Of a stretch of 64,000 nucleotides of DNA, positions 40,668-60,505 are shown in pieces. The DNA lies in assembly GCA_033220425.1 (NCBI GenBank), contig CM065652.1:4526001-4590000 (forward strand), read 5' to 3'. The position numbers were made by a program, and so were the translations under genes. Origin of the DNA: Lepraria neglecta. Taxonomy: Eukaryota; Ascomycota; Lecanoromycetes; Lecanorales; Stereocaulaceae. Numbering within the stretch: position 1 is the first letter of the stretch; each line of letters begins with the position of its first letter. Under the pieces are notes generated by a model, which did not search any database, had not been told where the DNA came from, and saw nothing but the letters and a program-made list of their open reading frames with translations.

Positions 40668-42385
40668 CTAGACCGTTTCTTTCAGCCTAGTGGCCAACAT
40701 CTGATCCAAAACTTTCAAAGCTTCTTTGGTGTCCTTGGTGGTAGGACCTTCGAGGACGGATTTTCCGGCCGTCATGGTTAATCTCTCTGGAGCTGGTTGT
40801 TCCAGGTATGGCATCACTCGAGCTTTGTGAGCTGCTCTGAACACCTGCGTTGTGTTAGGAGCTTTCTGGATATATGTAGAAAAAGAACCGTACCTTCAGG
40901 TGGTTCACAATCTTCCTGACCTCATCCTCGATCTTCATGTCGCTATGTTCCTTCAACTTGTTGCGGAAAGAGTGTTCCTTAAGCGCAATGCATAATTCTC
41001 TCTGGTTGATGGGAATATATCTAATCATATTCTCGTCGGTGAGGTAGCGGTCCATGCCCAAGAAAGCGTCTAGCGCTTGGAAGAATAAGACGTGATTGCC
41101 AGAAAGTCCATCATACTTGATGAACTCGCCATCAACCATTTTTCCAACGCCCCACCCTTGGAAGCCCTGGACGTAACTCAACCACACCGAGTGTGATATA
41201 CGAGACTCGGTGAGGTTTTCGTAAAAAACCCGGAGGAGATGACGAAGTCTAAAAGCGATATTCTCAAGGTGGTTCACGCACGATACCTTGTCGTTCTCCT
41301 CGAAGCAGATGACGGCACGAACCATCTCATAATAAATAGGAAAAGCCTTAAAAGTTTGTTAGAAGTAGGAAAACGATTTCAAAGGCGTCTATGCATACCA
41401 AGACTTCCAAATCATAGAACATGCGGAAGAAGACCTCCTCTGATGATCTGATCAAATCCGACATACCAACGTTGATCTTGTAAACTCTTTCACCTCTCTG
41501 GTTAAAGTTATGCAGGACGTTTGCTGTGTTGTTTCCGCTTTCAGCAGTCACGCCGAAGTTTCGCTGGAGGTAAGGCCAAGGCGCATCAAGCTCCTGTGGA
41601 AAGTCGATAACCTTCTCAAGTTGAGCGACCTTGACAACAGGAATTGTTGCCCATCTTAGACATTCTCAGCTTGGGTTCATTTTCCAGAAGCGTTATAAAC
41701 ATTACCTGTATGCGTGGCGACACACAGCAACGCAAGCATAAAATCCATTATAAGCGTCTCGAGGAAGGATATCCCAGTTTCCAGCTTCCACTGCAGCCAT
41801 GATTTCCTCGACATGGGCGATGTTGATTCGTTCGGTCAAGAGCTTTCGCATGAGCGAACGGTATTTGTTGCGTCGTTCATTGTTGACGTTGTCATCGAGC
41901 GAAGGCTCGGCGGTAGTCAAGAGTGGACTAAGCTCCAGGTAGATATCTTTATATGGGCGGAGAGCCATTGGCCATGAGTCGTGATTCGCTTTTGGTGGCC
42001 AAGCTCCCGCACCATCCTTATCGAACAACTCTAATAGGATTGACGCCGTTTCGTGCTGATCTTTGAGTGTCCTCAAGTCTTTTATCTTCGAGACGTTTCC
42101 CGTCTCGTCAACCTCAACCGGCCTAGGACGCCTTCTCAATAATAGACTTCCCAAAACAATGATGAGACCGCCCAAAAAGCAGAGAAAGAAAATCATCGTG
42201 TAAAAAGTGTCTCTTGGAGGCTCCTTCGTTGAATAGCGGAAAATCCTTCGTTGAATAGATAGAGTCAAGAAAATATCAATGCAGAATTGTAAAATTTTGG
42301 CGATGTAACTCCATAGCTTTGGGACTTGGAGAGCTTGGACACTTATATAGTCTACGGCCACGAAATTTGAACTTCTAAGAGACAT
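40668..42385 (-). CDS. PrnB/indoleamine 2,3-dioxygenase-like protein with N-terminal membrane anchor
   Basis: Four exons on the minus strand: 42,385-41,706, 41,654-41,399, 41,346-40,894 and 40,844-40,668, separated by GT...AG introns of 51, 52 and 49 bp. Total 1,566 nt, 521 codons plus TAG, frame unbroken. Residues about 61-83 form one strongly hydrophobic segment followed by RRRPRP, predicting a membrane anchor with the domain outside the bilayer. The C-terminal ~400 residues contain blocks I recognise from fungal proteins of the PrnB-like (DUF1864) group, which share the indoleamine 2,3-dioxygenase fold: LPRDAYNGFYACVAVCRHAY, SGNNTANVLHNF, INVGMSDLIRSSEE, WLSYVQGFQGWG and DGLSGNHVLFFQ. PrnB acts on a tryptophan derivative in pyrrolnitrin synthesis; whether this protein binds heme or uses an indole is unknown, and no proximal His was assigned. 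A weak TATA-like element lies about 45-55 bp upstream (42,430-42,440). Gene model confident; function moderate. Confidence 0.75.
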
Positions 42386-43611
42386 AGCCAGCGCTGCCGG
42401 GACGTTTTCTCAGCTGGATCATGTCGCCGTATAATATAAGCAGAGCTTTCTCATTACGAAGGGACCAATGCTTCGGGTTTGGTGGATATATCCACTTCCT
42501 TCGTTCGTTACTAATTATAAAGACTACACCGACAATTCCGTCAGCTCACGGTAGGATTCTCATGCCAGAAAGGTTATCCAATGTAGCAAGGGCATGTGTT
42601 GGTACGACGATTATAAGGTTAGTCGGCAGTCCAGATCAACATTTTTCACGTGGGTGGGGTTAACGCCATCTTCTCCTTCAAGGCAAACGAGGCGAACGCT
42701 TTGCCTAGCGGTTTCATTGTATATCCCACATCCTAATATAGTGTAAATCTCCGGGGTCAGCGCAATTTCTTACACTTAGTGTATCAGGACATGGTACTCC
42801 AGAAGCCTACAGAATCCTTCGGGCCAAGACCCAAAGCATGCAACCACAACATATCATGTTCCATGCGGTTCGAGAAACAGGCGGAAGAACACGACCCCTG
42901 GAACCCGTCTAGCCTTACGGTGCCAGGGGTAAAAAATGCGACTCTGACTAAAGCCTCGACTGGACTTCGACTGGTGGTATCGAAAAGATCACTTCCCTTC
43001 AGGCTTAGGCAGAGTGAGCCTTGAAATTTTACTAGAATACTCAACTCGCCAAATCGGCCGACCACAGAATGGGAGGCCGAGATTGAAAGCAACGCACGCT
43101 GCTGGCTGCCGCGTATGCATGATGCTCATCCGTGTACTCGTGTCAGCCTGAGACCTCAAACTCTACGCAGCTTCCGTCCCTGATTACTCCGAGTCACTGT
43201 CACATCGGCTGACCGTGGTAAGACTATCTCTCGAGCCAGTTGTAGACGTGCCAAGTGTGTTTTTATGCGTTGAAAATCCATCGCAATCTTAGCTTTGAGC
43301 TAAGCTTGGTTTGATCTCCACGGAGCTTGGTGTTCAATTATTAAGCAGCCTTCCACGTTTTGCATTTGGTGAGTATCACTGATGAGGCCGAGACTAGAAT
43401 GTTCAGTGCTGCAATCTTTGATCTATTTCTATCAGATTTGGAGAGACTGGGAAAGGACACATGCTCCTATGTCTTCGCAGAATTGTCATTGTAGCTGCTT
43501 CTAAATTCATTAAGGACAACCCAAAAAAAAACTCCAGATGCTACAGAAAGGACAATAACCTTTTCGATGATCCTGTCTAGCATTTCAAGGAAGCTCTTAA
43601 AAGTAATTCTT
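42386..43611. other. Intergenic region upstream of the PrnB-like gene
   Basis: About 1.2 kb between two minus-strand genes. Includes a TATA-like tataatataag at 42,430-42,440 and an A-run near 43,524. A 102-codon frame (43,092-42,784, minus) lacks domain, signal or hydrophobic features and is not called. No repeats seen. Confidence 0.5.
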
Positions 43612-44573
43612 CTATGGCTTCCTCGCAATTGTAACAGTATACTTTTGGTGTACACCCTCCTCAGAGGCGATATCACGGAGACTCTCCTTAGTCAATCTCG
43701 CCAACTCGCCGCCGGCGATGCCCTGGGCTCCCAACATCTTGCGGAGCAGCTCCGGGTAATGCGGTACCAGCTTAGCCTGCACATATCTTCCCATAGCCAG
43801 GCTGTTTGGCGTCTTGCTCGACGGCACAAATGAAAACTCAAACGTTCGAACGCTGATGATCTCCAACCCAGCATCTTTCATGATTGGTGCAGCATCAGAG
43901 CCAGCGTGTGTTGACAAACCAGATTGCTCGGCCCCTGAAACGACGGCTCGGTGCCACTCCCACTTATCACTAAGACATTCAGATGTCCCGACACGGTAAA
44001 ATTTCCAGTCCAAGTCCTGGTGCTCAATGATGCCACCAGACCTCAACGAGTGGTAGGCGGTGGAAAAATATCGCGACCAGTCATTGATTCCCAGGAAAAG
44101 CATACGACCGAAAATGTAACCAAGCCCACCAGGAGTGAAAATCTCACGATTCATAACATCATCACCTGGCTTGTTGTAGTCGACATCCAAGACGTTTCCT
44201 ACGGCCCAGGCAGCGTTCGCCGGAGCCATCTTCTGCACAGCTTCTGGAACGGGCGAAATGTCGAGTCCGTAGACCTTAGCAGATGGGAACATGCCAGCGA
44301 TCTGGATTGTTGCAACGCCAGTACCGCAGCCAATATCGACGGCCTTTGACACACTCGTCATGGACTGGACAGGCGCTAGGCAGGGGACACCACCAACCAT
44401 CTCGACGATGGCAGCGGCCTGGGCGTCAAGTCGGTTCTGTTCGATAGCACTGCAGCATTTCTGTAAGCTAGGGTGTCTTGGAACGAGACGACAGGTACTT
44501 GCTCATTTGGAAGCACGTAAGCAGAGGACGTGCTATGATACCGGCGCTCGCTGGTGTTGTCGACTGTTGCCAT
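43612..44573 (-). CDS. SAM-dependent methyltransferase (class I, fungal TAM/LaeA-like type)
   Basis: Two exons: 44,573-44,499 and 44,460-43,612, giving 307 residues. The 38-bp intron (donor GTACCT, acceptor CTTACAG) is very short but is the only join that keeps frame and gives the expected N-terminus (YHSTSSAYVLPNE, then a Gln/Arg-rich helix and VEMVGG). Class I SAM motif VDIGCGTG is at about residues 66-73, followed by an acidic strand end (VYGLDIS). A post-I segment (GNVLDVD) and a GGIIEHQDLDW strand match the Rossmann core of fungal metabolite methyltransferases. No signal peptide or membrane segment, so cytosolic. TATATAAG at 44,638-44,645, 65 bp upstream, supports the start. Faces away from the transporter across a 924-bp shared promoter region, suggesting co-regulation. 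Substrate cannot be inferred. Confidence 0.85.
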
Positions 44574-44637
44574 TTTCAGTCGTCCGGCACTCGATGAAGG
44601 AACTGGGTTGCGACGAAAGGAATACCGAAAAGCACGC

Positions 44638-44645
44638 CTTATATA
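44638..44645 (-). promoter_or_regulatory. TATA box of the methyltransferase gene
   Basis: Minus-strand TATATAAG 65 bp upstream of the start codon, a usual spacing for a fungal core promoter with a short 5' leader. Confidence 0.6.
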
Positions 44646-44653
44646 GTATCCCC

Positions 44654-44703
44654 TATCCTGCTAGCGTGTAAGCCAAGAGACGTACACGCACTGTAGCAGG
44701 ATA
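44654..44703. promoter_or_regulatory. Inverted repeat in the divergent promoter
   Basis: Arms TATCCTGCTA (44,654-44,663) and TAGCAGGATA (44,694-44,703) pair perfectly, extended by GCGTGT/ACACGC after a 4-base bulge. It lies directly upstream of the methyltransferase TATA box. It could be a dimeric regulator site or transposon footprint debris; the following ggatataggatatc resembles the GGATAT tracts at the island edges. Confidence 0.4.
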
Positions 44704-45497
44704 TAGGATATCAATCCACAATGGGAGACAGTACCCTGCAGCGATCTCTTACATACGTATGCTTATAAATCTCAGGTGCCTCATGCGTGCGCATCTCCAA
44801 GGACGTAAAAGCTGTAATGAAAAAGTCGGTGTGTAATATACCATGTTTGCACTGGTATTGTAACCGCCGCCTTGGACTGTGCACCAAAGGGGCAAGTTCG
44901 ACCGAGTCAGGTCCTTCGATTTTAGGATTTGAGCGGTCTGCGCTCTAACCCACTGTTAAATCGCCTAGCGCACGGATTTAGCATGATGCACTACTACCTT
45001 ACTCTTGAATACTACGCTGACCCGAGGGATGCTGATTTGAAATGCAAGAACAAGGTAGCCAGCCACCCGCCGCCATAAGAACCACTAAAATCCTTGGCGT
45101 GAGCGCTGAGATGTTAGTCTCACACGGGAGCTAGGTCGACACCGACGGGCTTGCCGATCAGAGACCTAAGGTAAGGTAAGTAAAGCGGCGATTTTCCCCG
45201 GGTGTTCCATTTGTGAGCCCCGAGAGCGAGCGTGACTTCCCCTTCTTTGGTGTTATCATTAAGCGGTATTATTGTTATTCCACGAAAGGCTTGTTTGAGA
45301 CAAGTCATGTCATTTCATTAGACAGCAAGTCTTAGCGGGGCTGTTCAAAACCACCTCACCCTATATCTAAGAATCAAGCGCCTTACACCCGCCTCTTCCT
45401 ACTACTTCAGCCAGCCCATCAATGCCCTGCACTAGGTCTTGTCTTCGTTAAACTCACAACAGAGATCTTGAACTTCAGCACCTGTCGGCTGCTCAAG

Positions 45498-47361
45498 ATG
45501 GCTCGCGGTTCCTCAGCGAGCGAACACGCTAACGACACTCCGTCTTCTTTTCTTCACCCCAACGACTTTCCAGCCAGCGAACATGGCAAGGAGACTCCAT
45601 CGATTTTGCCCATTGACATAGTGTTCCCCGAGGCAACACTACAGAGGAGTAACACTCCCCCGAGCGCGCTACGACAGAATCTCTTCATGATTTTCATCAC
45701 TTTGACCCAGTTGGCTCAAATGATTCCTTTGGGTGCCGGTATTAACTCTGGTCTTGCTATTGGAGAAGCGCTGGGTGCGACACACGTCGAGTCGGTTTGG
45801 ATCGTTGCGTCATACCCTCTGACCCAAGGCGCGTTTGTTCTCATCGGTAGGTGTTTGCCTCATCGATTTCCTTTTACAGCAAAGTGGAGTGGCATTAGAC
45901 TGACCATTTTGTCTTCTCATTAGGTGGCCGGCTGGGCGCCGTTTATGGTCACAAAACTGTATTCTCCGCCGGCTGTATGTGGTGGGTTTTCTGGGCTTTG
46001 TGCGGTGGATTCTCCAACAATTTGGTCTCCATGTGCATTATGAGAGGCCTTTGCGGTATAGGTGGCGGCCTGATGATTCCGAACATTGTGGCCTTGTTGG
46101 GCATCACCTTCCCGCCAGGAAGAAAGCGAAATCTTGGTCTGGCTCTCTTTGGAGCAATGGCACCTGTCGGTGCAGCTGGCGGTTCTCTTGTCTCCGCAGT
46201 CATCGTCCAATTGTCCGAGTGGAAATGGTTGTTCTTTATGCTGTGAGCATTGAATTCTCCTGAATGATAGGTTCCCTTGCTGATATCTTCTCTTCCAGAG
46301 GTCTGCTAGGTTTTGTGGTCTACGGTACCGCGATGGTCACAGTCCCAGGGGATGAACCCATTGATCCAAATGGTGAAGTTGACTGGGTCGGCGCTTACCT
46401 GGGAGTTGGTGCTCTCATCTTGTTCAATTTCGTCTGGAAGTAAATACTCTTGTGGACGTCACCATGCATTAGAGACTAACGCTTTCGCAGCCAAGCACCT
46501 CTCGCCGGGTGGGATAGCGCTTACGAGATCGCCCTTCTTATCCTGTCCGTCATCCACTTCACCGGCTTCGCATACTGGGAAGCGAAGGTTACCCAGGAGC
46601 CGATCCTACCTTTCATTATTTGGAAAGCACCTTCGTTCGGTATTCTTATGCTCGCCATTTTCTTCTCCTTTATAAGTTTAGGTATCTTCTTTTGGTATAT
46701 AAATATCTATATGCAAACCATTCGCGGAGACAGCCTTATCATGGTCGGTGTTCAATATTTACCGCTAACGGTCGTTGATTGTGCGAATGCCTTCTTCGCC
46801 GCCTGGCTCGTTCCCCGGGTACCAGCCCAAGTCATTATCGGTATGGGTTGCCTGGCGATGACCACCATCAACGTCGTGTTGGCCACCATTCCGGCAAAGT
46901 TAACTTACTGGGCGATGGCATTCCCAGCAATGTTTTTGTCTGCGTTCACGATCGATTTGATCACCACCAGCACCCAAATTATTACAAGCAATACTGTACC
47001 ACTGAAGCATCAAGGCGTTGCAGGATCTCTGGTTGGTGCGTTGCTCAGTTACGGCATGAGTACTGGTCTCGGCTTTGCTGGCACTGTTGAGGTTAACACC
47101 TTTGACAACGGGAACAATCTTCTCAAAGGTTATCATTCTGCCGCATATTTGGCGGTGGGCTTGGCCAGTGCCTCTCAATACTCAGTGTGGTCTTCATCCG
47201 CATACCCAAAGATACCCGAGAGGGCTGGGGTGAGGACGAAGCGGAAGAGGAGAGGAGACGAGCGTGAGACCTTTTTATCCATAAGCTTTATTATCAAAAT
47301 GAAGGCATTGCTGTTCGGTATATGGCGTATAGATACTTATAAACTACTTGGTTCCCTGTAG
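45498..47361 (+). CDS. MFS multidrug/metabolite transporter, DHA2-like (14-TM type), frame slip near the C-terminus
   Basis: Exons 45,498-45,846, 45,924-46,242, 46,299-46,439 and 46,491-47,361; introns 77, 56 and 51 bp. The ATG at 45,498 (CAAGATGG context) follows an upstream reading frame with no better start. As annotated, 559 residues: a ~60-residue polar N-terminus (with a repeated SEHxxxTPS motif), then hydrophobic segments through the C-terminus. Motif A (GGRLGAVYGHK) spans residues 117-127 across intron 1; a GAMAPVGAAGG motif C-like stretch follows. Plasma-membrane drug:H+ antiport is the family role; in this context export of a cluster product is likely. Oddity: after about 47,176 the annotated frame loses the usual tail, while the shifted frame gives VFIRIPKDTREGW and a Glu/Arg-rich end stopping at 47,265-47,267. 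One base appears lost between about 47,175 and 47,190, by mutation or sequencing error. Confidence 0.82.
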
Positions 47362-47565
47362 ACCATTAATGCGTTTCAATACAGGACTAGAACCATAGAC
47401 TTGCGGCGCTGGCAGTCATGGCGTGAGCCGAGCTGACCTCATAACAGCTATCAACTAGCATTGAACTTGCAAGAATCAGGTTTCTTTCCGAAACCTGCAA
47501 ATTTAAGCCCAGATTGACTACGGCTACCCTTCAGCCCATCAACGTAAAGTTTGCCTCTTCGCGGT

Positions 47566-47691
47566 GGGGCTGGGCTTTGCCGGCACCACCGAATCCTCCC
47601 TTAATAATCACAACCGTGACATCCCCGACAGCTACCGCAGTGCGTGGTAGTACGTGAGCGTTGAGCTCGCAGTTCTACGTTGATTTATCGC
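47566..47691 (+). pseudogene. Relic of a second MFS transporter (C-terminal fragment)
   Basis: A reading frame here gives GLGFAGTTESSLNN followed after a few residues by SYRSAW and YVSVELAVL, closely parallel to the neighbouring transporter (GLGFAGTVE..., GYHSAAYLAVGLA) near its last membrane segments. The frame is interrupted by a stop within the match and there is no upstream homologous sequence. It is therefore a truncated leftover of a duplicated or separate DHA2 gene, 205 bp after the intact copy's stop. Divergence at synonymous-looking positions argues against a very recent duplication. Confidence 0.6.
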
Positions 47692-48476
47692 GGAGGCTTT
47701 TGTACTAATAGGATTAAGGAGGAGGAGGGAGATCGGCGAGTTGATATGAAACTGTTGCAGATGCTGTAGTGAAGCATTTAATTTTCGCCCGTGGTGCTGC
47801 AATCGAGGGAGTGGAACAATTGAAAGCCGATTTCCAGGAGTGTTCAGAAGTTTGATAAAGGTTTAACTTTTAGAATTCACTTCCTATACCAGTTCACTCC
47901 AAACCTTCTTTCTCATTTTCACGAAAAGTAATCCACCTATATTCCCTCTTTTCGAACGGAAAACCCTCCTACAGCTATGGTAACAGCAATTCATTTGAAT
48001 TATGAGCGGTATCATACCTACGCTATTCCATGGGCTTGTCTCATCTTCATCTGAACATATACCCTATTCGCACCCAGCACATGTCAAACATGTTCGTATG
48101 CTCAATGAGACGACGTGTCTCTATCTTGTATATATAAGGAACCTGAGTTCTAGATTATCAAAGAATTAGCCGTGCGGTACTTCATCACTTTTGGCACGCC
48201 GGGAGAAGGGGACTAGGTGCATGTTCGCTAAAGGTGATATAAATGGATGCGGTTGGGGAGTGACTTGCTTATTAGCTCTGTGTGTATGTGATCCGGAGGC
48301 AAGTAGTATATCTGCTGTGTGGAATTCCTGCAATACCTCTAGCTACTCTGAATTTACCCGTGTTTTGCTTGAATCCTATCAGCACCCCAACCTGCAGATT
48401 TCATTTCCTCGTCACACATATCCCGACTGCACCAGCATCTCGGAAGAAACCACATCATTCAAACTTCTCTTTGCTC
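47692..48476. other. Intergenic, between MFS relic and secreted-protein gene
   Basis: No domain-bearing frame. A short acidic/basic coding-like tail follows the MFS relic (to about 47,770). A plus-strand open stretch from 48,191 overlaps the secreted-protein gene and is treated as its shadow. Confidence 0.45.
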
Positions 48477-48798
48477 TCAAAATGCCTGGATTGAGAACGG
48501 CTTCACGTTTGACCCCAGAACCTTTCCTTCCCTTTGCAAAACACTGGTTGCATTCGCTAGTGCCGACTCATGGAACGAGGCAAAATCTGCAGACACGCCT
48601 CAACATCAGCATTCCCACTATCGAGAGCCAACTTGCAATTTTCGAAAGCCGGGGATATGCACATACCTTGGGGATACCCTGTCGAGTAGGCGTATATGCT
48701 CCACACTATAGCCGTCTCATACTGGAAGATAGATTTACTCTCGAGCGTGACCCAGTAGCCAGGAGGGCAACGGTGGCGAAGGTTGCTGAGAGTTTCAT
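48477..48798 (-). pseudogene. Small secreted protein gene, probably broken once
   Basis: Minus strand. Exon 1 48,798-48,667 begins with a clear signal peptide (MKLSATFATVALLATG). The 80-bp intron 48,666-48,587 has a consensus donor GTATGT, a branch-like GCTGATG and acceptor CTGCAG. Exon 2 48,586-48,477 ends ...VKPFSIQAF then stop. The secretory frame and the frame entering exon 2 (QYETAIVW..., DFASFHES...) differ by one base, so about one break lies just after the signal peptide; exon lengths sum to 242 nt. Mature product would be about 60 residues, without cysteines. A TATA-like tatttaaaat lies 33-42 bp upstream. Family unknown; secreted small proteins near RIP-affected repeats are often studied as candidate effectors, but nothing here shows that role. 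Not known to belong to the metabolic genes around it. Confidence 0.55.
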
Positions 48799-49993
48799 TG
48801 CAATTGGGAGCAGGAGCGAAATGTGATGGGATTTTAAATAGAGTGGGTCTTGTATATCAAGGAGCTTGGAAGAGAAAGGAAGTTTAGTAGAGGGCATCTT
48901 TCACATTTTAGCGATATTCGATATGACTAAAATGGATTGCAAAACAGGCGTGATTCGTAAGCCTCCCTTAATGTCAGTAAGGCTGGAGGTCTGAGTAAAA
49001 CATAGGTCGCTAAACCGGCCTCCCTCGCTCCTGCATCCGTCCTACAGGTCTAGTAAGCTCACTGTCAGCCTCTCATTTTCAGCACCGTATGAGCACGGCC
49101 GAAGATGACACGAGATTCCGGAAGACGTGGGATTCAGCCATGTCCGTGATCCTTCCTGACTGCCATTGTTTTGTTCGAAAGCGTGCTCCAATATTAATAC
49201 GGAGGATCCGAATGCTGATCTTGATATTCTCAGATATTGTATGGGTTATTAGCGTCCTTTGATTTAGCGAGGATTCGAGCCCAAAGAGGCTAGGACTAGG
49301 GTTATTTTCAACCCTTCAAATAACACACCACCAGACGAAAATCAACGACCGCTTCATGCTAACGTACAAAAGCTAGACGACTTTGGTCATTGTAAGGAGC
49401 TTTGTTGAGGCCTGATGCCAGCTGACAAAATTGATCACCGAAGATGTGAATACGGTAAACCATCCGGCCGCACATTGGCAACGCTCCCGTTGCCATCACT
49501 CAGCTGTGGCTATACGCCGCATTGTGACATCTGCATAATCCGCCAGGATCCTAAAATACTACATTGGAGATACCGATGTTGCGAGCCGAAGGCCAATGAA
49601 GCTAACGGGTGTTCGTTGGGTTCTATTTCACCGCGCTCGACGCTGAGGAGCTGTATAGTCACCCTACCGTCAAGCTGCCATCCCGACTTCAAGGTTCCGA
49701 AAGGCAAGGCAACAAGGGGCTCGTGTCATACTAGTACCACCGGCTCCGCGAAGTAGAGTAGCAACATGGAACGGCATGTGGCATTCCTTGGCCTCGTGCC
49801 TAGATAGCTTTCCTTTTGTTTCGTGGACGGTGGGTCAAGCTGACTATCAAGGATGTAGACTATCATGTGAAACTTACAGAGATAGCCTTATCCGAGCATA
49901 TAAAGCCCCCCATACTACCTACTCCTCTACTTCTCCAAAAAATATCCCTCTCTTCAAAGGCGATCTCTGTGGCTCGCTCTTTTCTATATCGAG
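48799..49993. other. Intergenic region upstream of the tyrosinase gene
   Basis: About 1.2 kb of normal-composition DNA. The only notable element is the TATAAAG at 49,899-49,905. Open frames near 49,415-49,756 show no recognisable features and lie on opposite strands over one another. Confidence 0.5.
49899..49905 (+). promoter_or_regulatory. TATA box of the tyrosinase gene
   Basis: TATAAAG 89 bp upstream of the ATG, followed by a C/T-rich leader (cctactcctctacttctcc) typical of fungal transcription start regions. Confidence 0.6.
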
Positions 49994-51321
49994 ATGGAGC
50001 TCATCACTCTCTTTATGTGCCTACTGTATACAGTGGGAAACATTGTCGAGGCTATTCCTACTAAGAACAACACCCAGGTGGCCGCATCGCGTCAGATCAC
50101 CAAATGGCAGAAGCAGTACAACCAGTACATTGAAGCAACAATCAAGACTCGCAATTCAGGATGTACTTCCGATAATATAGTCTATCGTCAAGAATGGTAA
50201 ATATCGCTGCATGACTGAACGATACGAATGGCTACGTACTGACGTGCCGACCAGGGGATCCCTCTCCCAGCAATCCCGCATTGAATATACCAATGCTGTC
50301 CAATGCCTACAGCAGAAGCCTGCCATCAGCTCACTGTCCGATATTCCTGGCGCGCAAAGCCTCTTCGATGATTTTTCTGGTACCCACATCATACAGGCTC
50401 CTCATGTTCACTTCAGCGTACGTATCTTTTGCCTCCTCTGTCTGGGGCCAATCGCTAGGAAAGACCGACTGAATGCTGAAAAGGGTATATTTTTCCACTT
50501 CCATCGCTACTTTATCTGGCTCTACGAGAAAGCCCTTCAAGAAGAATGCGACTATAAAGGTACGCAACCGTACTGGGACTGGACCCTATCATGGCAAGAT
50601 CCACGAAAGTCACCCGTCTTCGATGGTTCTCCAACCTCCCTAGGCAGCAACGGCAAACCCACTCCCCACGGCCCCACCAATCTCACAGCCTTCGGCATCG
50701 ATCTCGAAATCGCCCCAGCCACCGGCGGCGGCTGTGTCTACTCGGGCCCTTTCAAGAATTATACCGTGAATCTAGGCCCGGTCGCCTTCGCGCCCATCGA
50801 CGGCGACAACGGCCTCGACTACAACCCACGCTGCCTATCGCGGGACATCTCCCTTGTCTGGAGCAACAAAACCAAACCTACAGATGTCACGAGCCTCATC
50901 TCTAGCTGTGCTGACCTCGGCTGCTTCGATACTGTTCTCGAGGCAATCGATGGGGTTCATGCCGGCGGGCACTTTACTATTGGCGGCGTAGATATAGACG
51001 CCTACGCCAGCGCCGGCGATCCGGCATTCTATTTGCACCATACACAGGTTGATCGCGTGTGGACAATATGGCAGAATTTGAATTCACGGAATCGGACGAG
51101 GCAGGTATATGGGACAAGTACAGCGTTCAATGGTGAGTTCCATTTCCATTTGTTCCATCTTCAAAGGATCATATATGTTAATGGGTCGGATGCTCCTAGT
51201 CCCACCAAGTCCGAACGTGACATTGGACACCAACATTGATTTCGGCATCCTTGCACCTCAGCAGCCAGTGAGCAATCTGATATCATCTATTGATGGACCC
51301 TTCTGCTACATGTACATTTAG
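49994..51321 (+). CDS. Secreted tyrosinase-like type 3 copper oxidase
   Basis: Exons 49,994-50,196, 50,255-50,417, 50,484-51,132 and 51,200-51,321; introns 58, 66 and 67 bp, total 1,137 nt and 378 residues, frame intact. Residues 1-20 (MELITLFMCLLYTVGNIVEA) are a signal peptide, so the enzyme enters the secretory pathway. CuA candidates: His118/120 (APHVHFSG) and His127/129 (HFHRYF), followed by YWDWT. CuB: His281 and His285 (VHAGGHFTIGG) and His307/308 (DPAFYLHHTQVDR). Several N-glycosylation sequons (NYT, NKT, NRT) fit secretion. The C-terminus PFCYMYI matches the short, tail-less fungal tyrosinase form, which lacks the long inhibitory C-terminal domain. Family reaction: o-hydroxylation of monophenols and/or oxidation of o-diphenols to quinones. 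In cluster context it may oxidise an aromatic intermediate; that is inference. Confidence 0.88.
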
Positions 51322-52232
51322 TGTGGGTGGGGGCATTACGATCCTCGCCAGCGTAGTCTTGAGATCGTGATCTCGAAAGGCGTTGAAAGATGGTTGAGAA
51401 GTCTTCAAACCCGTACGGATTGGCGTTATGCGGTTTGGCAAATTTCTACTCCAACCCTTATCTTTTCTGTTCCAAGTTCCTCCACAATTTTTCCGCAGAT
51501 TAACAAACAAACGCGTTCCCTCATCAAGTACGGGGCGCCTTTATCACGCCATAAGAAAACAGTGACCGAGACAGTCATCCTTGCCTTGTCCCTGCCCCCA
51601 ACCTCCAGTTTCCCCTTGACCCTTACGCTCACTCGCCCAGTCAACTCAACCTAGACACTGAAAATCCACCCTACGACTTTAAAAAATCCCCAAGCATGTT
51701 TATTTCCCCTTATTTGGCCTTCTATCAGGCCGCTATTCAGAGCGTGATAATAGTTATCGGAGGTATAAAATAGCCTCAGACTTTATGAATCTGAAGCGAA
51801 AGAAAACCGTGGGAGATGTGAATGGCAAGCAACGCAGTAATGACGTGATGGAACCCTTGCCAGCAATGCCATTTCAGCACCTAAAAGCATAAATGTGAGC
51901 GTGCTCGTCTCGATGGATTTGGAATTGCTTCTGTGGAGATCCATTCCGCAAGTTCGCATGGAGGATGCAAAGGAGATTCGGGGATAGAAGAATAAGGGGT
52001 GAATACCATGGGAAAGGGTGATTGAGAGGCTTAAGGATGTGTCTTCAGTAGGCGAAATAATAATTGGAGATTGGTATACAGTAGATCCCTTAAGAGTGAT
52101 TGATTGAGGCTAGGGTGTTTCTAGAAGATGGAAAGTCTTGTCTGTGTACAACATGCCAAGGCAAGCCAGGCCTCCCCCTCCCCCCAAGGCATAGTGGTCT
52201 TTCTGGACCAAGCGTGCACCCGCATCAGACAC
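51322..52232. other. Convergent 3' intergenic region
   Basis: Between the ends of the tyrosinase and NmrA-like genes, so mostly terminators and spacer. Contains a C/T-rich stretch (about 51,590-51,630) and a C-run near 52,168. No gene seen. Confidence 0.5.
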
Positions 52233-53223
52233 CTACTTTGCTAGGCTATTCACCAAACTCTGGACTTCAGCATCGCTCATCTCCTTGATGCCTAACAACT
52301 CATTGTCCGGCTTTTCAAAATGGGATCCATACCCCTCACCCCAAATCGACGCATTGATGAAGTTGATGACGAAATTATCTGGATTTGGCTTATCCTTCTT
52401 CAGCTCTGCCCAGGCTTGCTCGAGCACCTCGTCAATAGGTACAACACTCTTCTTCCATCCCTCTGCCCCAGTGGCCTTCTCGCCCATAGCCGCCAGCTTC
52501 TTTAACGTCGTTGTAGTATCTTGTACGTACACGGCACGATCCTTGGTTTGCTCGGGGTGCGTAAGGACGCCGATGACGGCCCTACCGATAGTTGGGAGGG
52601 ACGTGGCGCTAAAGACGCGATCGCCGCCGTCGAATAGGCTGATACTCTTTCCTTTGAGATTCATAATGAAGCCGACCATCATACCCCAGTCGAAGAAAGG
52701 CCCCGAGCATATGAGGGTGTAGGTCATGCCGCCGGAGGCTGCCTCTTTCTTGAGGGCGTCCTGGACTACGACTTTGTCCTTGAAGACAGGGAGAGTACGG
52801 GTCTTCTCATTAAGGGTGTTAGAACCAAACTCGGAGGGAATGAAGCGCTTGACATGGGCTTTGGCCGCGGCCTCGACCAGGAGAAGTTGTGTGGCGATAG
52901 CGGTGGAGGCAAGGGTGGAGACGAGGGCTTCTTGGCCTTTGAGGGCGTTGGTGAGGGAGTCGAGGGAGTCGTAGTCGACTGAGATGGCGGTGACGGAGGA
53001 GGGAAAGCTATGAGTGCTGCTCTTACGAGTAAGAACTGTGACTTTGAAGCCAGCGTTGAGGAGTTGGTTGAGGATGGCTGGGCCGAGGTTGCCAGTGGCC
53101 TGCGCGAGAATTTGGTGTCAGTTATTTGGAAGGGCGTAGCAGAGGGAATTGAGACGGTGAGCTGGGCGGAATTATTGAAAGTTGTCTTACCCCAGCCAAA
53201 GCGACTTTGGTGATGCTGCTCAT
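52233..53223 (-). CDS. NmrA-like / isoflavone-reductase-like NAD(P)-binding protein
   Basis: Two exons: 53,223-53,191 and 53,099-52,233, with a 91-bp intron (GTAAGA...CGCGCAG) cutting exactly inside the dinucleotide-binding motif. The join yields MSSITKVALAGATGNLGPAI with the GxxGxxG fingerprint at residues 11-17; total 299 residues, frame intact, usual length for the family. Further hallmarks: VTVLTRKSS after beta-2 (Arg suggests NADP(H) preference), a DYDSLDSLTNAL segment, VKRFIPSEFG, and TYTLICSGPFFDWG. No signal or membrane segment. Family members are either reductases of aromatic substrates or redox sensors such as NmrA; here, next to methyltransferase and tyrosinase genes, a tailoring reductase is the likelier role. 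TATAAA-like tttata (53,481-53,486, minus) is far upstream, so the 5' leader may be long. Confidence 0.86.
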
Positions 53224-54125
53224 ATCGTTGGAAGGTTTCGTACTTGTTTTGGTGGAAGGTGAATAGGTGAGATACTGACGAGCCTAATCGAACTATTTTG
53301 GGAGAGTCCGTGTGATGGGTTGATAGTGGTTTGCTTGATGAATGAAGTCGAGGGTATTTGGAAGCCGAATAAGAGATGTCGGTAAAGTACGGTGAGCCGG
53401 ACTGTAGCATGGGGTGCAGCTTCTATTGCTGACGAAAACGGAACAAAATGGAAGTTCCCTCACCGAACTCCGAACGCCAATTTATAAGTCCGTCTCGCTT
53501 TCTCTTGATTTCAAATTGACTACTCTAAGTAAGGTAACAATGTGCTGCCTTACCCCACTGATCCCTAAGGCTCTCTCCACCGAGGCCAGCCCTCAAGGGT
53601 GAAGAGCCTGATCACTTTCAGGGTCTTAAGGTCTTTTGCTCTGCAGATGGGCGCACGTATCATATATCCCACATCCCACGTTACATTCCCCTCCCACATC
53701 CCACATCTGATGACATCTGACTACTCCACATGACCACATCTCACCTCGAGCTGCGATGCATTGGATCATCGGTGCTAGCATATGGTGCCCGCTATCAGCC
53801 CGGAGCTAGGGTGATCCTAATTATTAGTGCGACGGCCGAAGCCGCTGTCTTGGCAAAGTCTCGCCCAATAGGTACCTTATTCTAGCTCCATGCGCTTTTA
53901 AACGGCGAAAGCTGAAGCGGGCCGCTAAAACGTCGTCTTGTTGATCGCGGAGAACGGTAATTAATGATTACGCTAGATATCCACACGATGTATTGTAATA
54001 CTGTAAGTGGTGTCTTACAGATCTACTTTTCCTGTTTACCTAAGTCCTTATCATCCCTAACTGATGACTTTTCTACTTCACGACATTCACGGCTAACCCA
54101 CCGGCAGTGATTTGGCCGGAGGACA
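53224..54125. other. Divergent promoter region, NmrA-like gene/transcription factor
   Basis: About 900 bp between outward-facing genes. Holds a low-complexity stretch of CCCACATC-type repeats (about 53,685-53,750) that could be regulatory or a simple repeat. No gene seen. Confidence 0.5.
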
Positions 54126-56788
54126 ATGAACCAGTCCGCTCCTTCCTCATACTTCCCCCCGCAAAGCCACCCGATACCGCAGACACCGATCTTGTAGCCG
54201 ACGATCAGGCGCGTTAAATGCACTCTTCCTAGTTGCGGCAAGCTATTCCATCGAAAAGAGCACCTGACTCGACATCTCAAATCACATGATCCACAGCGCC
54301 AGCATGAATGTCCCATTTGTGGGCGACGATATGCACGAAGGTAAGCTCACCCTCCCACGCTGACCTTGATTTGAACCCAACCACCAGCTTTCAAGCTAAG
54401 CCTAGTCCCTGGTCTGATTTAGTGATGTGTTGAAGCGTCATGTCGAGCATCATTCCCAGGACTCCAACTCCAGCCGCACACTGGTCGCGTGCGCTTCGTG
54501 TCACGAACGAAAACTTAAATGCGACGACAGTACACCTTGCCGATCATGCACTCGCAACTCGACTGAGTGCAGCCGGGTCAGTCTAGGTCGGGAAAGCCGG
54601 ATGAGTATGAGACTAGGGATGTGCAATGGGAATGAGAATGAAATGATGAATGGGAATGAGAATGAAATGATGAATGGAAATGACCAAATGTTGACAAACA
54701 AGATCAGTGACATTAACGAGATGAGTACTGTGTTGCCGAGTAATGACCGTCAACAGTCGTGGTTCCAACTTGTTCAGGACACTTGGCCTCTATCATTCCC
54801 TCCCACTTGGCTCAATGCATCGTTCCCGAGCGACATGAATGCTGGCAACCTTGTACAGGGAGCCGTGGATCCTGCTGAACAAGGACGTGTTGAAGGCGCA
54901 TTTTCTGCCTCTGCAGCTGAAGGTTCTTCTTTCCTTTTGCCAGGAACCAATGATCCTCAAGTCGAGCGCTTGTCCAGCGCATCTCCGCATGATGTGGATC
55001 AGGGTGACAGAACCGCGTCATCACTTGCGTCCCAGTCGCCTGCATCTTCAAGATCATCTCAAGAAGATCATGTAACAGACCTGCATAGCTGCCTCAACGA
55101 AGAGTCACTGGCCACCAAGAGGCTTATTCAAGTGTACTTTGCAGAGACCCACCCATACTGGCCAATCTTGCATGCCCCTACATTCGATATAGCAAACGCT
55201 TCACATGTCTTGTTAGGGTCTATGATTGTGCTTGCCAGCTGGCTGGAGGGCGAGCCAGACCACATGAAGCTTGCTCCACTTGTCTTTGATGCGGTAACCG
55301 CAACCCTGCTGGTATGAAATTGCTTCCCTTGTGTCCTTATAGGAAATGATTAATCACAGGCATGTAGGAACCTACCCCCTCGTTTAGCAGGGACATTCAG
55401 CCAACGTTTTTGCACACTTTACAAGCTCTTTTACTATGTGTTGTGTACACTACTTGTTGTCTCGTAAGTATAGAATGTGGCGGGAAAGGCAGCGGGTGTG
55501 CACGTGGTTCATGACTAACATCGTAACAGACTACAGGGGGAATGTTGGCAAGAGCAGTCTATTTCAATGGCATCCTCATCTCAAATTGTCGCCATCTAGG
55601 CGTCTTCAATGGTCAGTACGCGTATCATGACCTTGGCGATAGCCCATTCGCCTTTTGGCTGGCTCAAGAACAATTGCATAGGTACTCTACACTGGTTTTC
55701 AAGACCTCAGCTCATGAGTAGTCGCTTGACCTAATGCATGCTTGCTCATCCAGGCTCGCTTTCTCTGTCCTCCGCGTAGACGCCTATCTCAGCGTTCTTG
55801 TGGACCATCCACCTTCCGTCCGCTATCAAGAAATCTGCATCCCTCTTCCTAAGTCTCCTCGCCTCTGGACTGCTGCCAGCGAGGATGAACGACGCAGCCT
55901 TCAATGGAACGAGCCTTCAGGACGCGAAAAGGCCCTCCTCTGCTTCCTCGTGCGCGACGCTCTTGATTTCAACCGCCGGCGCCACCTCCCCTACCACCTC
56001 ACCGAGGCAGACTACCATCTTAGTCTCTGCTCCCTCCAGGTCGGAACATGGGAAGCAGCACGCGAAGCTCACAGCTGCGAATCGGACGAGCTCGTCACAA
56101 AATCAACGCCTAGAGATCCCGTCCAGCTCTGGCGCACTCATCTCGATCTTTGGCGGGTCAGCACGGAGAATGACTGCCTACTCCGCCAAAACTACTTCTC
56201 CGCCTCCACATCCAGTGCTGACCACATCTTTTCCCCTCTCAGCCTCATCCTCTGGCACATTTCAGCCCTCACACTCCATGCGCCCCTCAAACTTCTCCAA
56301 GGCCAAGGCTGCTGCTTCAAATGCCGCTCTGCCGCTATGACCACGCAAAAAACAAGAGCACGTCTCCGCGCCTGGACTGCGTCCCCCAACGCCCGTACCG
56401 CTGTGTGGAACGCCGCCCAGATCTCCCGCGTCGTCGCACATGAATCTACCAGCCCTACACCCACTACCCGCCTCTTACTCAACCCACTCGCTATCCCCGG
56501 CGTCCTTAAGAGCGCTATCATCACTTGCTCGTACGCTTTCAATACTCGTGCTTGTCCTGTATGTACTGGCGGCCCACCGATCGATCTGGTCGATTTGTTC
56601 GGTGCAAAGGACGAGGATGTGAAGTTGGTAAAGTGGAAAGAGCAGGGGCAACTTGGGCTCCCGGTGGAATTCCGATCTGCGAGTGTAAGGTTAAGGCATT
56701 GGCGACGTGGTTTCGCAGGGCGCTCGCCATCGACAAAGGCGCGGAGATGGAACTACTGTCATTTCTCAGAAGGCTAGGCAAGGAATAA
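54126..56788 (+). CDS. Dual zinc-finger transcription factor (two C2H2 fingers plus Zn2Cys6), frame slip near the end
   Basis: Proposed exons 54,126-54,133, 54,209-54,340, 54,423-55,311, 55,368-55,463, 55,530-55,681 and 55,754-56,788. Finger 1 C7-x4-C12-x12-H25-x3-H29 and finger 2 C37-x2-C40-x12-H53-x3-H57; the second is assembled only by removing the 82-bp intron, good evidence for the join. The Zn2Cys6 cluster CASCHERKLKC...CRSC...C spans residues 70-96. An N/E/M-rich repeat (NGNENEMM, two copies) follows, then a fungal-specific regulatory region (ETHPYWPILHAPTF; LARAVYFNGILISNCRHLGVF; HRLAFSVLRVDAYLSVL). About 770 residues; nuclear. Two oddities. The first intron has a weak donor (GTCCGC); read unspliced, the frame meets a TAG at codon 24 (TTG-TAG). 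Near 56,650-56,660 the frame slips: the expected tail (GGIPICEC...MELLSFLRRL) is in the next frame and stops at 56,788, otherwise translation ends at 56,777. Likely the cluster's regulator. Confidence 0.75.
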
Positions 56789-57637
56789 TTGATTTGCGAG
56801 AGTGGGCCAAGGCGGGAAGTTTAGTCGGCCAGCAAAAGAAGAAGTGTGTCATGGAAATGTAGAATTCTTCAAAAGTTACAACCTGCTGATATAAGGGGGC
56901 ACATGAGTGCCACTCAAGAGATTATTCTGTTCCTCTTTTGTAGCAATAGGCAGTAGTATTGGTGTTCGTGGCATTTCAGCCAATAAACTAACTTTCAATC
57001 AGAGGTCAAAATTGCTCCGTTCGTGGACAGATGAATTCGCTCAACATTTCCAGTCAGGGGACGCCAAAAGTGCTTCGCCGAGTCATAGATAGATGCTCAC
57101 TTCATCCTAGTTGATTTGGCTATACACAAATCTAGTCGACTACCCTATAATCATTCATCTGCCTACGCTAAGATCCCCTCTCTTACTAAATGTAGCCAGT
57201 TTACTATCAACCGTCTCCATCAGCGACCGAAAGAACTAATATCCCGCCGCACCCGCAAACCCTTCTCGTCGTTGACCTCAGCGTCATCATCATTTCCCTC
57301 CTAGTTCATCATCTTCCCTCTTTTCAGCCTTGGTATCCAGCTCCTTCAATAGATATTTTATCCCTATGTATATATCCCGCCACCATTGTACCGGAGTCTG
57401 CAGTTGGGACATCTTAGGTGTCTTGGGATAGTGTGAAATGGCTTCTGCTGCTTGTAGGTATAGTGTTCACGGGTTTTTCTTCTTTTTTCTTTTTTCCTCA
57501 GATAGATCTAAAGAGCTAGCTGAACGTTGCGAAGCTTGTCGCGCTTTCCCAAAAGATTATACTATTAGCGTTACAGCTAGTTCGGCGCTATTAGTAGACC
57601 CTATATGTGAGTATATAGCGCGCTATCGGTACGTCGT
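56789..57637. other. Right edge of the gene island
   Basis: About 850 bp of normal-composition DNA with a T/C-run at about 57,470-57,498. Small frames (57,116-57,304; 57,438-57,671) show no domain and the latter runs into a dispersed repeat. No gene called. Confidence 0.5.
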
Positions 57638-57639
57638 CA

Positions 57640-57885
57640 CATACAAAGGTATATTCAAAGACATGAAGTAGTTATATTACTGGCATAGTATAGATGGTTC
57701 TATATTAGAACTAATTACTAAGGATCCTCAGGAAAGAAGTAGATAGACCGCTCCTTAAGCTTCTTTCTACGGGTAATATATATCTACTATTAGATAGCTA
57801 GTACTCTACTAAGAGCCTAGCTCCTAATAGCTACTAAGTCGATTGAATATTATCCCGGTCTACGCTAGCGCTCCGCGGGCTAGGA
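57640..57885. repeat. Dispersed ~245-bp repeat, copy 1
   Basis: Matches 63,773-64,000 in the same orientation (shared landmarks attactaaggatc, gaccgctccttaagcttctt, gagcctagctcctaatagct). Divergence is mostly C/T and G/A transitions. The pair frames the right-hand repeat block; they could be dispersed copies or the ends of one larger insertion. No protein or LTR-type ends recognised. Confidence 0.6.
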
Positions 57886-57929
57886 GATATTAGAATAGCT
57901 TTACTAATAAGATAGACCCTTCTAATATA

Positions 57930-59045
57930 ATAGTTAGTATTATATAAACTTATACTAGCTATAAAAATATAGCGAAAATACTTCTTTTAGTTATAACTTT
58001 TGTATAAATAGACTAACTTAAAATCTTTTGACGATATTAGAAAGTATATATTTAGTTCTAAAACTTATGAAATTATCTCGATATTATATAATATATATAG
58101 TAAAGGGTAATACTACGAAGAAGTTACGGTATATATTTAACTTTTAATATTCTAGGGTCCGGGGGACGCCAAGCTTCATGCTTAGCATTTGCTACTAAGC
58201 TCGCGCTACCCGTAAAACATGGCGAAAACGCTTCTTTTACTTATAACTATTGCGTAAATAGACCGATTTTGAAAATTTTGACGGCGTTAGAAAGCGTATA
58301 CTTAGTTGCAAAACTTATGAAATCATCTCGATACTATATAACCTATATGGCGCGAGGTAGTACTACGAAGAAGTTGCGATATATATTCAACTATATTTTG
58401 ATAGTTGATACTAAGTATTCTATAACTACTCGATTTGGTATTAGTTATCGGAATAGATATTAAAACCTATTCTATTATTAGAAGAAGATAAGTAAATATC
58501 TCTAATCTTCACAGAAGATTATCGTAAAAACTACTATATCTCGCTTATTTTATACTCGATTTAGAAAAGTTAAGCGGTATTAGAAACTCCTCTATATATA
58601 GTATATTATATATATATAAAGCTAAGCTCTAATTCTAATAGAGCAAAAGTTATTAAGGTTTTAGTATATTAGTACTTCGGAAACGGCTATAGAGTAGCTA
58701 TAGAGGTAGCTTTAGGGAACTCCGTAGATATAAATATAATTTTTAAAGCTTTTTTTAGCTAAATGTTAACTAAATTTTAAAATTCGGATAGTATTAGAAA
58801 GCGCATATCTAGTTCCAAAACTTATGAAATTATCTCGATATTATATAATATATATAGCGTAGAGTATTACTACGAAGAAGTTACGATATATATTCAACTT
58901 TTAATATTCTAGAGTCCGAGGGCGCTAAGCTTAATACTTAGTATTTACTTACGCTACTCGTAAAATATAGCGAAAACGCTTCTTTTAGTTATAACTTTTG
59001 TATAAGTAGACTAATTTTGAAATTTTTGACGGTATTAGAAAGTAT
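57930..59045. repeat. Head-to-tail copies of the 712-1681 repeat
   Basis: Two partial copies in tandem. The first (about 57,930-58,490) ends with the same ttattagaagaaga tail as 712-1681. The second (about 58,492-59,045) begins with the same AAGT...TAATCTTCACAGAAGATTA start and runs through the first ~530 bp of the element. Both are more RIP-mutated than the copy at 712. The junction defines the element's ends precisely (AAGT...GAT). Confidence 0.6.
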
Positions 59046-59047
59046 AA

Positions 59048-59218
59048 TAAGATCCACCCGGGACGTACCCTATAAAGGCCCTGATAAGGGCCGTACGGGT
59101 AGCGGGCCAAGTATTCTTGACTTTTGGCCCCCGTAGCTTAGAGGTAGCTCTAGCTCGGAGTATAACCTTTATAATTATACTTGGCCCTAAAACTCCGATC
59201 CGAGAATATCGACAAAGG
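59048..59218. other. Small GC-rich pocket with nested hairpin
   Basis: About 170 bp that escaped AT enrichment. Contains GGCCCT-GATA-AGGGCC (perfect stem) nested in a CGTACCC/GGGTA outer stem. A later patch (tagcttagaggtag) recalls an RNA polymerase III A box, but no matching B box or cloverleaf was found. Confidence 0.4.
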
Positions 59219-60423
59219 TATTACGAATCGTACGTACTAGTATTATATTTATAGATTAATTCTTAATAGGGATAGAGGTACTATCGGATAAGAGTACAAA
59301 GTAGACTTTAAGTAATACTAAGCGGGTCTAGTATATAATTAGATAATATATATTTAGTACTAGTCTAAAAGATCTATTATATACAGTAAATAAATAAATA
59401 GAAAGTTAAGTACAATACTCTAAATAGTAAATAGTACTCTATATATATAGCAATAGAAAATCTATACTAAGTATTCTAGATTATAGTAATCAAAGTAATC
59501 CGCTATACGATTAATACGATCTAATATTAGATTAAAATAATTGTAATCCTTAGCGCTACGATTATTATAATTAAAATATCCTATCTAAAGTTCCTTGTCC
59601 TTCGCGATAGTCCTATTAGAACTACTAGTTCTAATACTAGGCCTCTCCTCTAGATTTCTCGTCCTAAGAAACTAACTATCCTTTATACTACTCTATTATA
59701 CTAAACAATTATCTAACCTAATTATCTATCGAACGGAGCTGGCTAGTAAGTTATCCGAAGTAGTAATATATCTATACTCTCGATATACTACTACTAGAAA
59801 GTAGTATCTAATAGGTACTAATTCAGATCGATATTCAAGCTATATTACTAGGGGTAGGAAATACGATCTTATAGTATTACCCTTTAAGATATATTATATT
59901 AAAATAGATAGAAAGAAAGTATAGTCTAAGTTAAAATCTATATATAAAGAGTTGACTCGTTTAATAGAAGAGTCTATATATCTTTAAAATAAACTACTAT
60001 ATCTCTAGATATAATATAAATATATAGAGGAAGAGAAGAAGAAGCTCGCGAATTAAGAGTTATAGAATATTTAGAAGTTAGAGAAGGATTAAACGTCTAT
60101 TCCTAATACTCCTAATAATTTAATATTTAACGTCTTATCTAAGTAATTCGACTTCTCTAATAGTTTTAATTAGTCTTCCTACTAGAGTATTTCTAGAACT
60201 TTTATAGAAGATCTTAGTAGTTTATAAGGTTCTTGAGAGGTTCCTAGGTATTTTCGGTATTATTATACTCTTTCTATTTAATTAAATAATTCTAATCTAT
60301 CTAATATAGAATCCTTTTAACTTCGAACTTTATCTCTTCTTTAATATTATAATAAAATATTTACTATAGAGATATACTAGATTCTACTAGCTCTAGGAGT
60401 AAGATATAGAATATCTAATATAT
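59219..60423 (-). mobile_element. Ty3/gypsy fossil fragment, family D (3' LTR plus adjoining internal part)
   Basis: Minus strand: 3' LTR at 59,219-59,636 (418 bp, same U3 start GGACTATCGCG as the solo LTR at 30,742), then internal sequence up to a chromodomain-like segment (about 60,220-60,310). It stops at about 60,423 where GGATAT-type sequence begins. The remainder of the element is not in the window. Heavily RIP-mutated, broken many times. Confidence 0.7.
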
Positions 60424-60505
60424 CTATAGCCCGGAAAGATATAGGATAGTATAGGATATTGGCTCTCTTACCCATCCCGAAGTATAGTATAGTATCAAGA
60501 TCTAA
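60424..60505. repeat. GGATAT-type debris shared with the left island edge
   Basis: Contains cccggaaagatataggat, the inverse of the end of the tract at 39,683-39,887, plus acccatcccga also shared with it. Sits between two truncated gypsy pieces. Confidence 0.5.

What the first reader, a model, noticed from the sequence alone, without database searches (positions are those of the whole stretch)
40668..56788. A metabolite-type gene cluster with no backbone synthase: PrnB/IDO-like, methyltransferase, MFS, tyrosinase, NmrA-like reductase, dual-finger regulator
Six genes typical of secondary metabolism lie within 16 kb, isolated between RIP-silenced repeats, with outward-facing pairs sharing promoters. 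No PKS, NRPS, terpene synthase, DMATS or P450 is visible. A PrnB-like protein (IDO fold, tryptophan-related in the bacterial prototype) beside a secreted tyrosinase suggests a pathway starting from an aromatic amino acid or indole, with the PrnB-like protein as candidate entry enzyme. Cluster membership and chemistry are inference.
Basis: partly seen in the sequence, partly recalled or inferred. Interest (0 to 1): 0.82.

Follow-up and report, generated by a model that had tools for sequence, protein, structure and literature searches.

The report
Decaying twin of a fungal cluster
The six genes are really there, but four of them are a decaying second copy of a small gene cluster found with open reading frames elsewhere in the same fungus, and the other two are not part of that copied block, so this is probably not one intact six-gene chemical pathway.

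Summary
All six genes exist, and no backbone synthase or P450 domain turned up in the ORFs scanned. The grouping needs revising. Window ~44.8-57.35 kb (MFS, tyrosinase, NmrA-like, dual-finger regulator) has a paralogue on contig C4 (4712599-4725337): same gene order and relative orientation, 72-80% DNA identity in six matches. The IDO-like and methyltransferase genes have no counterpart there. The C4 frames are open. The window copy is decaying: the regulator has a stop before its DNA-binding domains and a 3' frame change, MFS has a 3' frameshift, and a fifth gene (small secreted protein, modelled in full on C4) has lost its middle. Flanks show strong RIP; neither block copy does. 'PrnB-like' is not supported; the protein is a very divergent IDO relative keeping the aligned haem histidine but not two motifs of canonical IDOs. 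The tyrosinase is a short polyphenol oxidase; NmrA is isoflavone-reductase-like. No UstYa match lies within 200 kb of either copy. Best reading: relic of a small phenol-oxidation cluster beside two genes that joined by chance or later.

The parts
40668..42385 (-). IDO-like gene, 4 exons (42385-41706, 41654-41399, 41346-40894, 40844-40668), 521 aa, one hydrophobic segment about residues 59-85
   Evidence: splice model; PF01231 E 6.3e-7, residues 220-492; protein search of own genome at E<=1 finds only itself; best PDB hit E 1.6; His469 aligned with IDO histidine; hydropathy
43612..44573 (-). SAM methyltransferase, 2 exons, 307 aa
   Evidence: PF13489 E 9e-8; best other place in the genome is 29% identical
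44826..57349 (.). Paralogous block: colinear with C4:4712599-4725337 (inverted); one weak 39-bp match (E 0.02) would carry it to 44717
   Evidence: blastn; tblastn
45498..47361 (+). MFS transporter, 4 exons, frameshifted over about its last 30 codons relative to the C4 copy
48480..48798 (-). Remnant of a small secreted-protein gene: first codons and 3' half remain; 551 alignment columns present on C4 are missing
49994..51321 (+). Short-type tyrosinase/polyphenol oxidase, 4 exons, 389 aa, signal-like N-terminus, His motifs present
   Evidence: PF00264 E 1.8e-52; A. oryzae catechol oxidase 4j3p E 1.9e-78
52233..53223 (-). NmrA-like/isoflavone-reductase-type reductase, 2 exons, 299 aa
   Evidence: PF05368 E 9.2e-25; phenylcoumaran benzylic ether reductase 1qyc E 1.1e-14
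54126..56790 (+). Dual-finger (2 C2H2 + Zn2Cys6) regulator, pseudogene: TAG at 54195, frame change near 56647
   Evidence: open frame on C4
1..38000 (.). AT-rich DNA with RIP signature, left flank
57500..64000 (.). AT-rich repeats with RIP signature, right flank

Best explanation
Shown: the window holds a decaying second copy of a small cluster (MFS transporter, small secreted protein, short polyphenol oxidase, isoflavone-reductase-type NmrA protein, dual-finger regulator) whose sister copy with open frames lies on contig C4, about 2 kb from a DAHP synthase gene. In the window copy the tyrosinase and reductase frames are open, the regulator and the secreted-protein gene are broken and the transporter has lost its normal C-terminus. 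The IDO-like and methyltransferase genes abut the block but are not in the C4 copy. Inferred: the C4 cluster makes or processes a phenolic compound: the secreted copper oxidase converts a phenol or catechol to a quinone, the reductase reduces an aromatic intermediate with NAD(P)H, the transporter moves the phenol, and the regulator switches the genes on; the DAHP synthase may feed the shikimate pathway. The window copy would at most add oxidase and reductase dosage, silent or driven in trans by the C4 regulator.
For: Colinear block, same order and relative orientation; six blastn matches of 72-80% identity, though 400-column stretches fall to 59% between genes. Exons map onto each other in all four genes. 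Similar divergence in all four: NG86 dS 0.43-0.53, dN/dS 0.19-0.25; YN00 dS 0.30-0.48, dN/dS 0.22-0.36. Lesions found only in the window copy and of different kinds (a stop codon, 1-nt, 10-nt and about 550-nt deletions), so hardly one assembly artefact. No IDO-like or methyltransferase homologue in 60 kb of C4 (relaxed search, best E 0.25 and 1.9). C4 sits in 46-58% GC DNA; large ORFs in that 60 kb include DEAD helicase, YEATS and inositol-pentakisphosphate kinase genes, whereas the window copy lies between RIPed flanks. Enzyme types. DAHP synthase. A secreted short polyphenol oxidase prefers lignin-type methoxylated phenols: PMC5424327 (passages).
Against: No outgroup genome was available, so which copy is ancestral is not shown; C4 could have lost the IDO-like and methyltransferase genes. 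Pairwise dN/dS averages over both branches and does not show that the window tyrosinase is still under selection. Function is by homology only. DAHP synthase membership rests on adjacency; it lies outside the homologous block. The secreted-protein gene on C4 is a splice model made by eye with one GC donor. An unannotated 5' exon could bypass the stop at 54195.
Confidence: 0.72

Rival explanations
1. One genuine six-gene pathway that starts from an aromatic amino acid or indole with the IDO-like protein as entry enzyme; the C4 copy has lost two genes.
For: Adjacency, divergent methyltransferase/MFS starts, both genes open and outside RIPed DNA (indices 0.77 and 1.19 in 40500-45400). IDOs serve fungal clusters: terreazepine TzpB supplies kynurenine, and 118 of about 38,000 BGCs held an IDO (PMC7448278, passages).
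Against: Absent from the paralogous block and its 60 kb. The characterised case has an NRPS, none seen here. The protein lacks the FYxRIRPF and GTGGT motifs of both canonical IDOs of this genome.
Confidence: 0.15
2. Dikaritin-like ribosomal peptide cluster: tyrosinase, isoflavone reductase, transporter and methyltransferase are typical tailoring genes of ustiloxin, phomopsin and asperipin clusters.
For: The enzyme types match: UstQ/PhomQ tyrosinases, AprR isoflavone reductase, AprT transporter, PhomM methyltransferase (PMC6514808, passages).
Against: Of 42 UstYa matches in the genome none lies within 200 kb of either copy. No ORF of 60 aa or more in window 38-58 kb or C4 4.700-4.735 Mb has a 5-residue word three times; the one long tandem repeat found (C4:4732842-4733034) lies in an ORF without regularly spaced dibasic sites. 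The tyrosinase scores 267 bits against the A. oryzae enzyme (phmmer) and 80 bits, 27% identity, against the genome's tyrosinase beside a UstYa pair (tblastn; different measures, exon by exon).
Confidence: 0.08
3. Catabolic or detoxification cluster for plant or lignin phenols rather than biosynthesis.
For: A short polyphenol oxidase acts on methoxylated lignin monophenols (PMC5424327, passages); best solved relatives of the reductase act on plant phenylpropanoids; transporter present; no backbone enzyme among the C4 ORFs scanned (26 of 81 of 130 aa or more).
Against: No ring-cleaving dioxygenase among those ORFs; the adjacent DAHP synthase on C4 points to synthesis of aromatics.
Confidence: 0.3
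4. Chance neighbours in a transposon-rich region, no functional cluster at all.
For: Fits the IDO-like and methyltransferase genes.
Against: Two colinear copies of the other four genes with matched divergence and constraint.
Confidence: 0.1

Closest known systems
Sister block on C4 of the same genome (4712599-4725337)
   Same: Order, relative orientation and exon structure of four genes; 78-83% protein identity over the parts compared
   Different: C4 frames are open and it keeps the secreted-protein gene; no IDO-like or methyltransferase gene; DAHP synthase about 2 kb away
Asperipin-2a and ustiloxin/phomopsin (dikaritin) clusters
   Same: Isoflavone reductase, transporter, tyrosinase, methyltransferase types (PMC6514808, passages)
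   Different: No UstYa-type oxidase and no repeated precursor found at either locus
Terreazepine cluster (TzpA/TzpB) of Aspergillus terreus
   Same: An IDO-family gene near secondary-metabolism-type genes
   Different: TzpB is 41% and 45% identical to A. fumigatus IdoA and IdoB and works with an NRPS (PMC7448278, passages); here a barely recognisable IDO relative and no NRPS seen
Fungal short polyphenol oxidases AoCO4 (4j3p) and TtPPO (6z1s)
   Same: Tyrosinase family, extracellular type, no C-terminal domain, His motifs
   Different: Substrate unknown here
Dual-specificity regulators Cmr1/Pig1
   Same: C2H2 fingers plus Zn2Cys6 cluster in one protein (PMC5415576, passages)
   Different: Orthology not tested; window copy is a pseudogene

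Membership tests
PrnB family (PF08933) | Matches the PrnB profile | tested here: not met
   No hit at E<=1; no hit in the genome at E<=10, though the control genomes were also empty
Indoleamine 2,3-dioxygenase (PF01231) | Profile match over the curated threshold | tested here: met
   28.9 bits against 26 for the spliced model, residues 220-492. Against: single exons do not match, the exon-by-exon genome search misses the locus, and hhalign to the two canonical IDOs gives probability 7.8%
Indoleamine 2,3-dioxygenase (PF01231) | Proximal haem histidine (role recalled) | tested here: met
   His469 aligns with the shared His of both canonical IDOs in MAFFT and in hhalign
Indoleamine 2,3-dioxygenase (PF01231) | Substrate-binding Phe/Arg motif and GTGGT loop (roles recalled) | tested here: not met
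   FYxRIRPF and GTGGT present in both canonical IDOs, absent in the window protein
Dikaritin RiPP cluster | UstYa (DUF3328) gene in the cluster | tested here: not met
   42 matches, nearest about 210 kb from the C4 block, over 1 Mb from the window block
Dikaritin RiPP cluster | Secreted precursor with KEX2-flanked repeats | tested here: not met
   imperfect or intron-split repeats could escape these tests
Fungal short polyphenol oxidase | Tyrosinase domain, copper His motifs, secretion signal, no C-terminal domain | tested here: met
   secretion judged from the N-terminus by eye
Fungal short polyphenol oxidase | Catechol or phenol oxidation activity | not testable with these tools
   Needs purified enzyme
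Backbone-type secondary-metabolite cluster | PKS, NRPS, terpene synthase or DMATS gene | tested here: not met
   Window. C4: 26 of 81 ORFs of 130 aa or more
Conserved six-gene cluster | Recurs as a unit in the own genome | tested here: not met
   4 of 6 recur together, 2 of 6 do not
Conserved six-gene cluster | Recurs as a unit in other fungi | not testable with these tools
   No other fungal genomes held

The most novel reading that the evidence does not exclude
A 12.5 kb block persists without RIP marks in a genome whose repeats are heavily RIPed because it arrived from another lineage rather than by duplication; it then joined a membrane-anchored IDO-fold protein that has lost the tryptophan site, a new haem-enzyme type that diverts the oxidised phenol to a new product under control of the distant C4 regulator.
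Probability: 0.07. Interest if true: 0.75.

Novelty: new member of a known kind. Interest (0 to 1): 0.4.

Why it matters
It replaces an attractive six-gene pathway by a testable history: a paired cluster with one copy of open frames and one decaying copy in the same fungus, which makes the C4 copy the place to look for chemistry, and shows how adjacency next to repeats can look like a cluster. It also leaves a puzzle: a long duplicate without RIP marks in a RIP-scarred genome.

Tried and rejected
PrnB label: not supported. Dikaritin RiPP: considered seriously after PMC6514808, not supported at either locus. RIP as the cause of the window lesions: not supported, transitions are nearly balanced (C4-to-window C>T plus G>A 764, T>C plus A>G 713), which does not exclude a single RIP hit. 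DAHP synthase remnant near the window: none in the window or the next 20 kb to the right (best E 1.9). PDB relatives of the IDO-like protein: best hit E 1.6 to a membrane subunit, taken as chance. NCBIfam gave nothing for it. The secreted protein on C4 has no Pfam match at E<=1. Literature: nine searches ran. Searches (15 of 15 papers listed; 1 of 1; 12 of 315) asked for this gene set and the listings show no paper on it; some asked around IDO-like genes and phenol clusters, with capped listings (for example 20 of 1,185); two were for the regulator and oxidase families. So 'not in print' is not claimed. Which copy is ancestral, and selection on each copy, could not be tested without an outgroup.
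Full report
What was checked. The window is bases 4526001-4590000 of contig C7 (4.73 Mb) of a 42.0 Mb, 11-contig fungal genome. I built splice models for the six genes and searched them as proteins. All six are present at the stated place. Pfam: IDO PF01231 at 28.9 bits (threshold 26) for the first gene; methyltransferase, MFS, tyrosinase, NmrA-like and C2H2/Zn2Cys6/Fungal_trans matches for the others (the C2H2 match, 22.8 bits, is under its 25.2-bit threshold). Scanning 20 further ORFs of the window found only a weak reverse-transcriptase match, so 'no backbone synthase' holds for what was scanned.

Surroundings. GC falls from 0.45-0.54 in the island to 0.25-0.42 in the flanks. RIP indices are 1.5-1.6 and 0.20-0.37 in 1-38000 and 57500-64000, but 0.72 and 1.29 in the block; 38000-40500 is intermediate (1.22, 0.90) (the usual thresholds, about 0.89 and 1.03, are recalled). 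Window 39000-40500 and 58000-60000 are multi-copy (61 and 120 matches with the query itself, lower bounds); copy number of 1-38000 was not tested.

The main result. A DNA search with the start of the MFS gene found a second place on C4, and the best other tyrosinase match lay about 4.5 kb from it. Searching about 60 kb of C4 (4694000-4754000) with the six proteins found MFS, tyrosinase, NmrA-like and regulator genes in the same order and relative orientation, and no IDO-like or methyltransferase gene. DNA alignment gives six matches of 72-80% identity between 45439 and 56836, some intergenic; a finer comparison adds short colinear matches out to 44826 (E 2e-8; a weaker one to 44717, E 0.02) on the left and 57349 on the right. 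The methyltransferase starts at 44573, so detectable homology ends 144-253 bp upstream of it. The IDO-like protein finds only itself in the genome at E<=1, the methyltransferase at best a 29% relative.

Decay of the window copy. On C4 the four genes read through from start to stop (one base of the MFS gene was not fetched and stands as N). In the window the regulator has a TAG at 54195 after 23 codons, before both zinc-finger types; the next in-frame methionine is at position 132 of that frame, beyond the Zn2Cys6 cluster at 95. It also has a 10-nt gap relative to C4 near 56647, and MFS a 1-nt gap near its end. A small secreted-protein gene modelled by eye on C4 (207 aa, 4 exons, one GC donor) lies between MFS and tyrosinase; in the window its first codons and 3' half remain and 551 C4 columns are missing. 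Tyrosinase and reductase frames are open in both. Divergence is similar across the four genes (NG86 dS 0.43-0.53, dN/dS 0.19-0.25 over 492, 389, 299 and 596 codons; YN00 dS 0.30-0.48, dN/dS 0.22-0.36).

No RIP in either copy. C>T plus G>A and the reverse changes number 764 and 713. In a genome whose repeats are RIPed, a 12.5 kb duplicate without RIP marks suggests transfer from a diverged lineage, or a duplication that escaped RIP. This is inference; no relative was available to test it.

What the proteins are. MFS and the methyltransferase are generic. The IDO-like protein aligns so that its His469 meets the shared histidine of the two canonical IDOs of this genome, but it lacks their FYxRIRPF and GTGGT motifs (hhalign probability only 7.8%, so the assignment rests mainly on the Pfam match of the spliced model; exon-wise searches missed it). 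It has one strongly hydrophobic segment at about 59-85. PrnB is not supported. The tyrosinase is a short polyphenol oxidase (A. oryzae 4j3p, E 1.9e-78; 6z1s, TtPPO, E 1.8e-75); such enzymes are generally extracellular and lack the C-terminal domain (PMC11608171, passages). The NmrA-like protein is nearest to phenylcoumaran benzylic ether reductase and eugenol synthases, so it is probably an aromatic reductase, not the nitrogen regulator. Regulators with C2H2 plus Zn2Cys6 domains are a known class first described as melanin regulators Cmr1 and Pig1 (PMC5415576, passages).

Mechanism. The most likely use of the C4 cluster is oxidation of a phenol by the secreted oxidase, reduction of an aromatic intermediate, and transport, under its own regulator. 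A DAHP synthase gene, one of four loci in the genome (three match as single stretches at 274-291 bits, this one in three pieces of 112, 92 and 44 bits), sits about 2 kb beyond the regulator, outside the homologous block. Catabolism or detoxification of phenols is the main rival. A ribosomal-peptide cluster was tested because tyrosinase, isoflavone reductase, transporter and methyltransferase occur in ustiloxin, phomopsin and asperipin clusters (PMC6514808, passages): none of 42 UstYa matches lies within 200 kb of either block, and no repeated precursor was found.

Verdict. Four of six genes are a clustered unit, seen twice; two are neighbours without support; the window unit is decaying. Interest is moderate.

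Noticed in passing
G000 C1:6124834-6129131: Two UstYa matches lie about 2.2 kb from a tyrosinase match: a better candidate for a dikaritin-type ribosomal peptide cluster in this genome.
   Followed up: no
G000 C4:4710089-4711083: A DAHP synthase gene beside the C4 block, one of four loci in the genome.
   Followed up: partly
G000 C4:4721336-4722196: Small secreted protein of 207 aa (model by eye) without any Pfam match; weak relatives at C7:317735-318172 and C4:843648-843824.
   Followed up: partly
window 39678-39881: A 200-base element with about 30 scored copies genome-wide, many with an inverted partial copy about 200 bases away, as in a small inverted-repeat transposon.
   Followed up: no
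window 54625-54683: A 24-base tandem repeat inside the regulator, not reported in the C4 copy.
   Followed up: no
G000 C1:5660937-5661401 (L034): A third, more divergent IDO-family match (53.5 bits) besides the two canonical IDO genes.
   Followed up: partly
window 23940-24257: Weak reverse-transcriptase match under Pfam's threshold, probably a relic of a RIPed retroelement.
   Followed up: no
G000 C4:4732842-4733034: A 90-base imperfect tandem repeat in a 546-aa ORF, about 7.5 kb outside the C4 block.
   Followed up: partly
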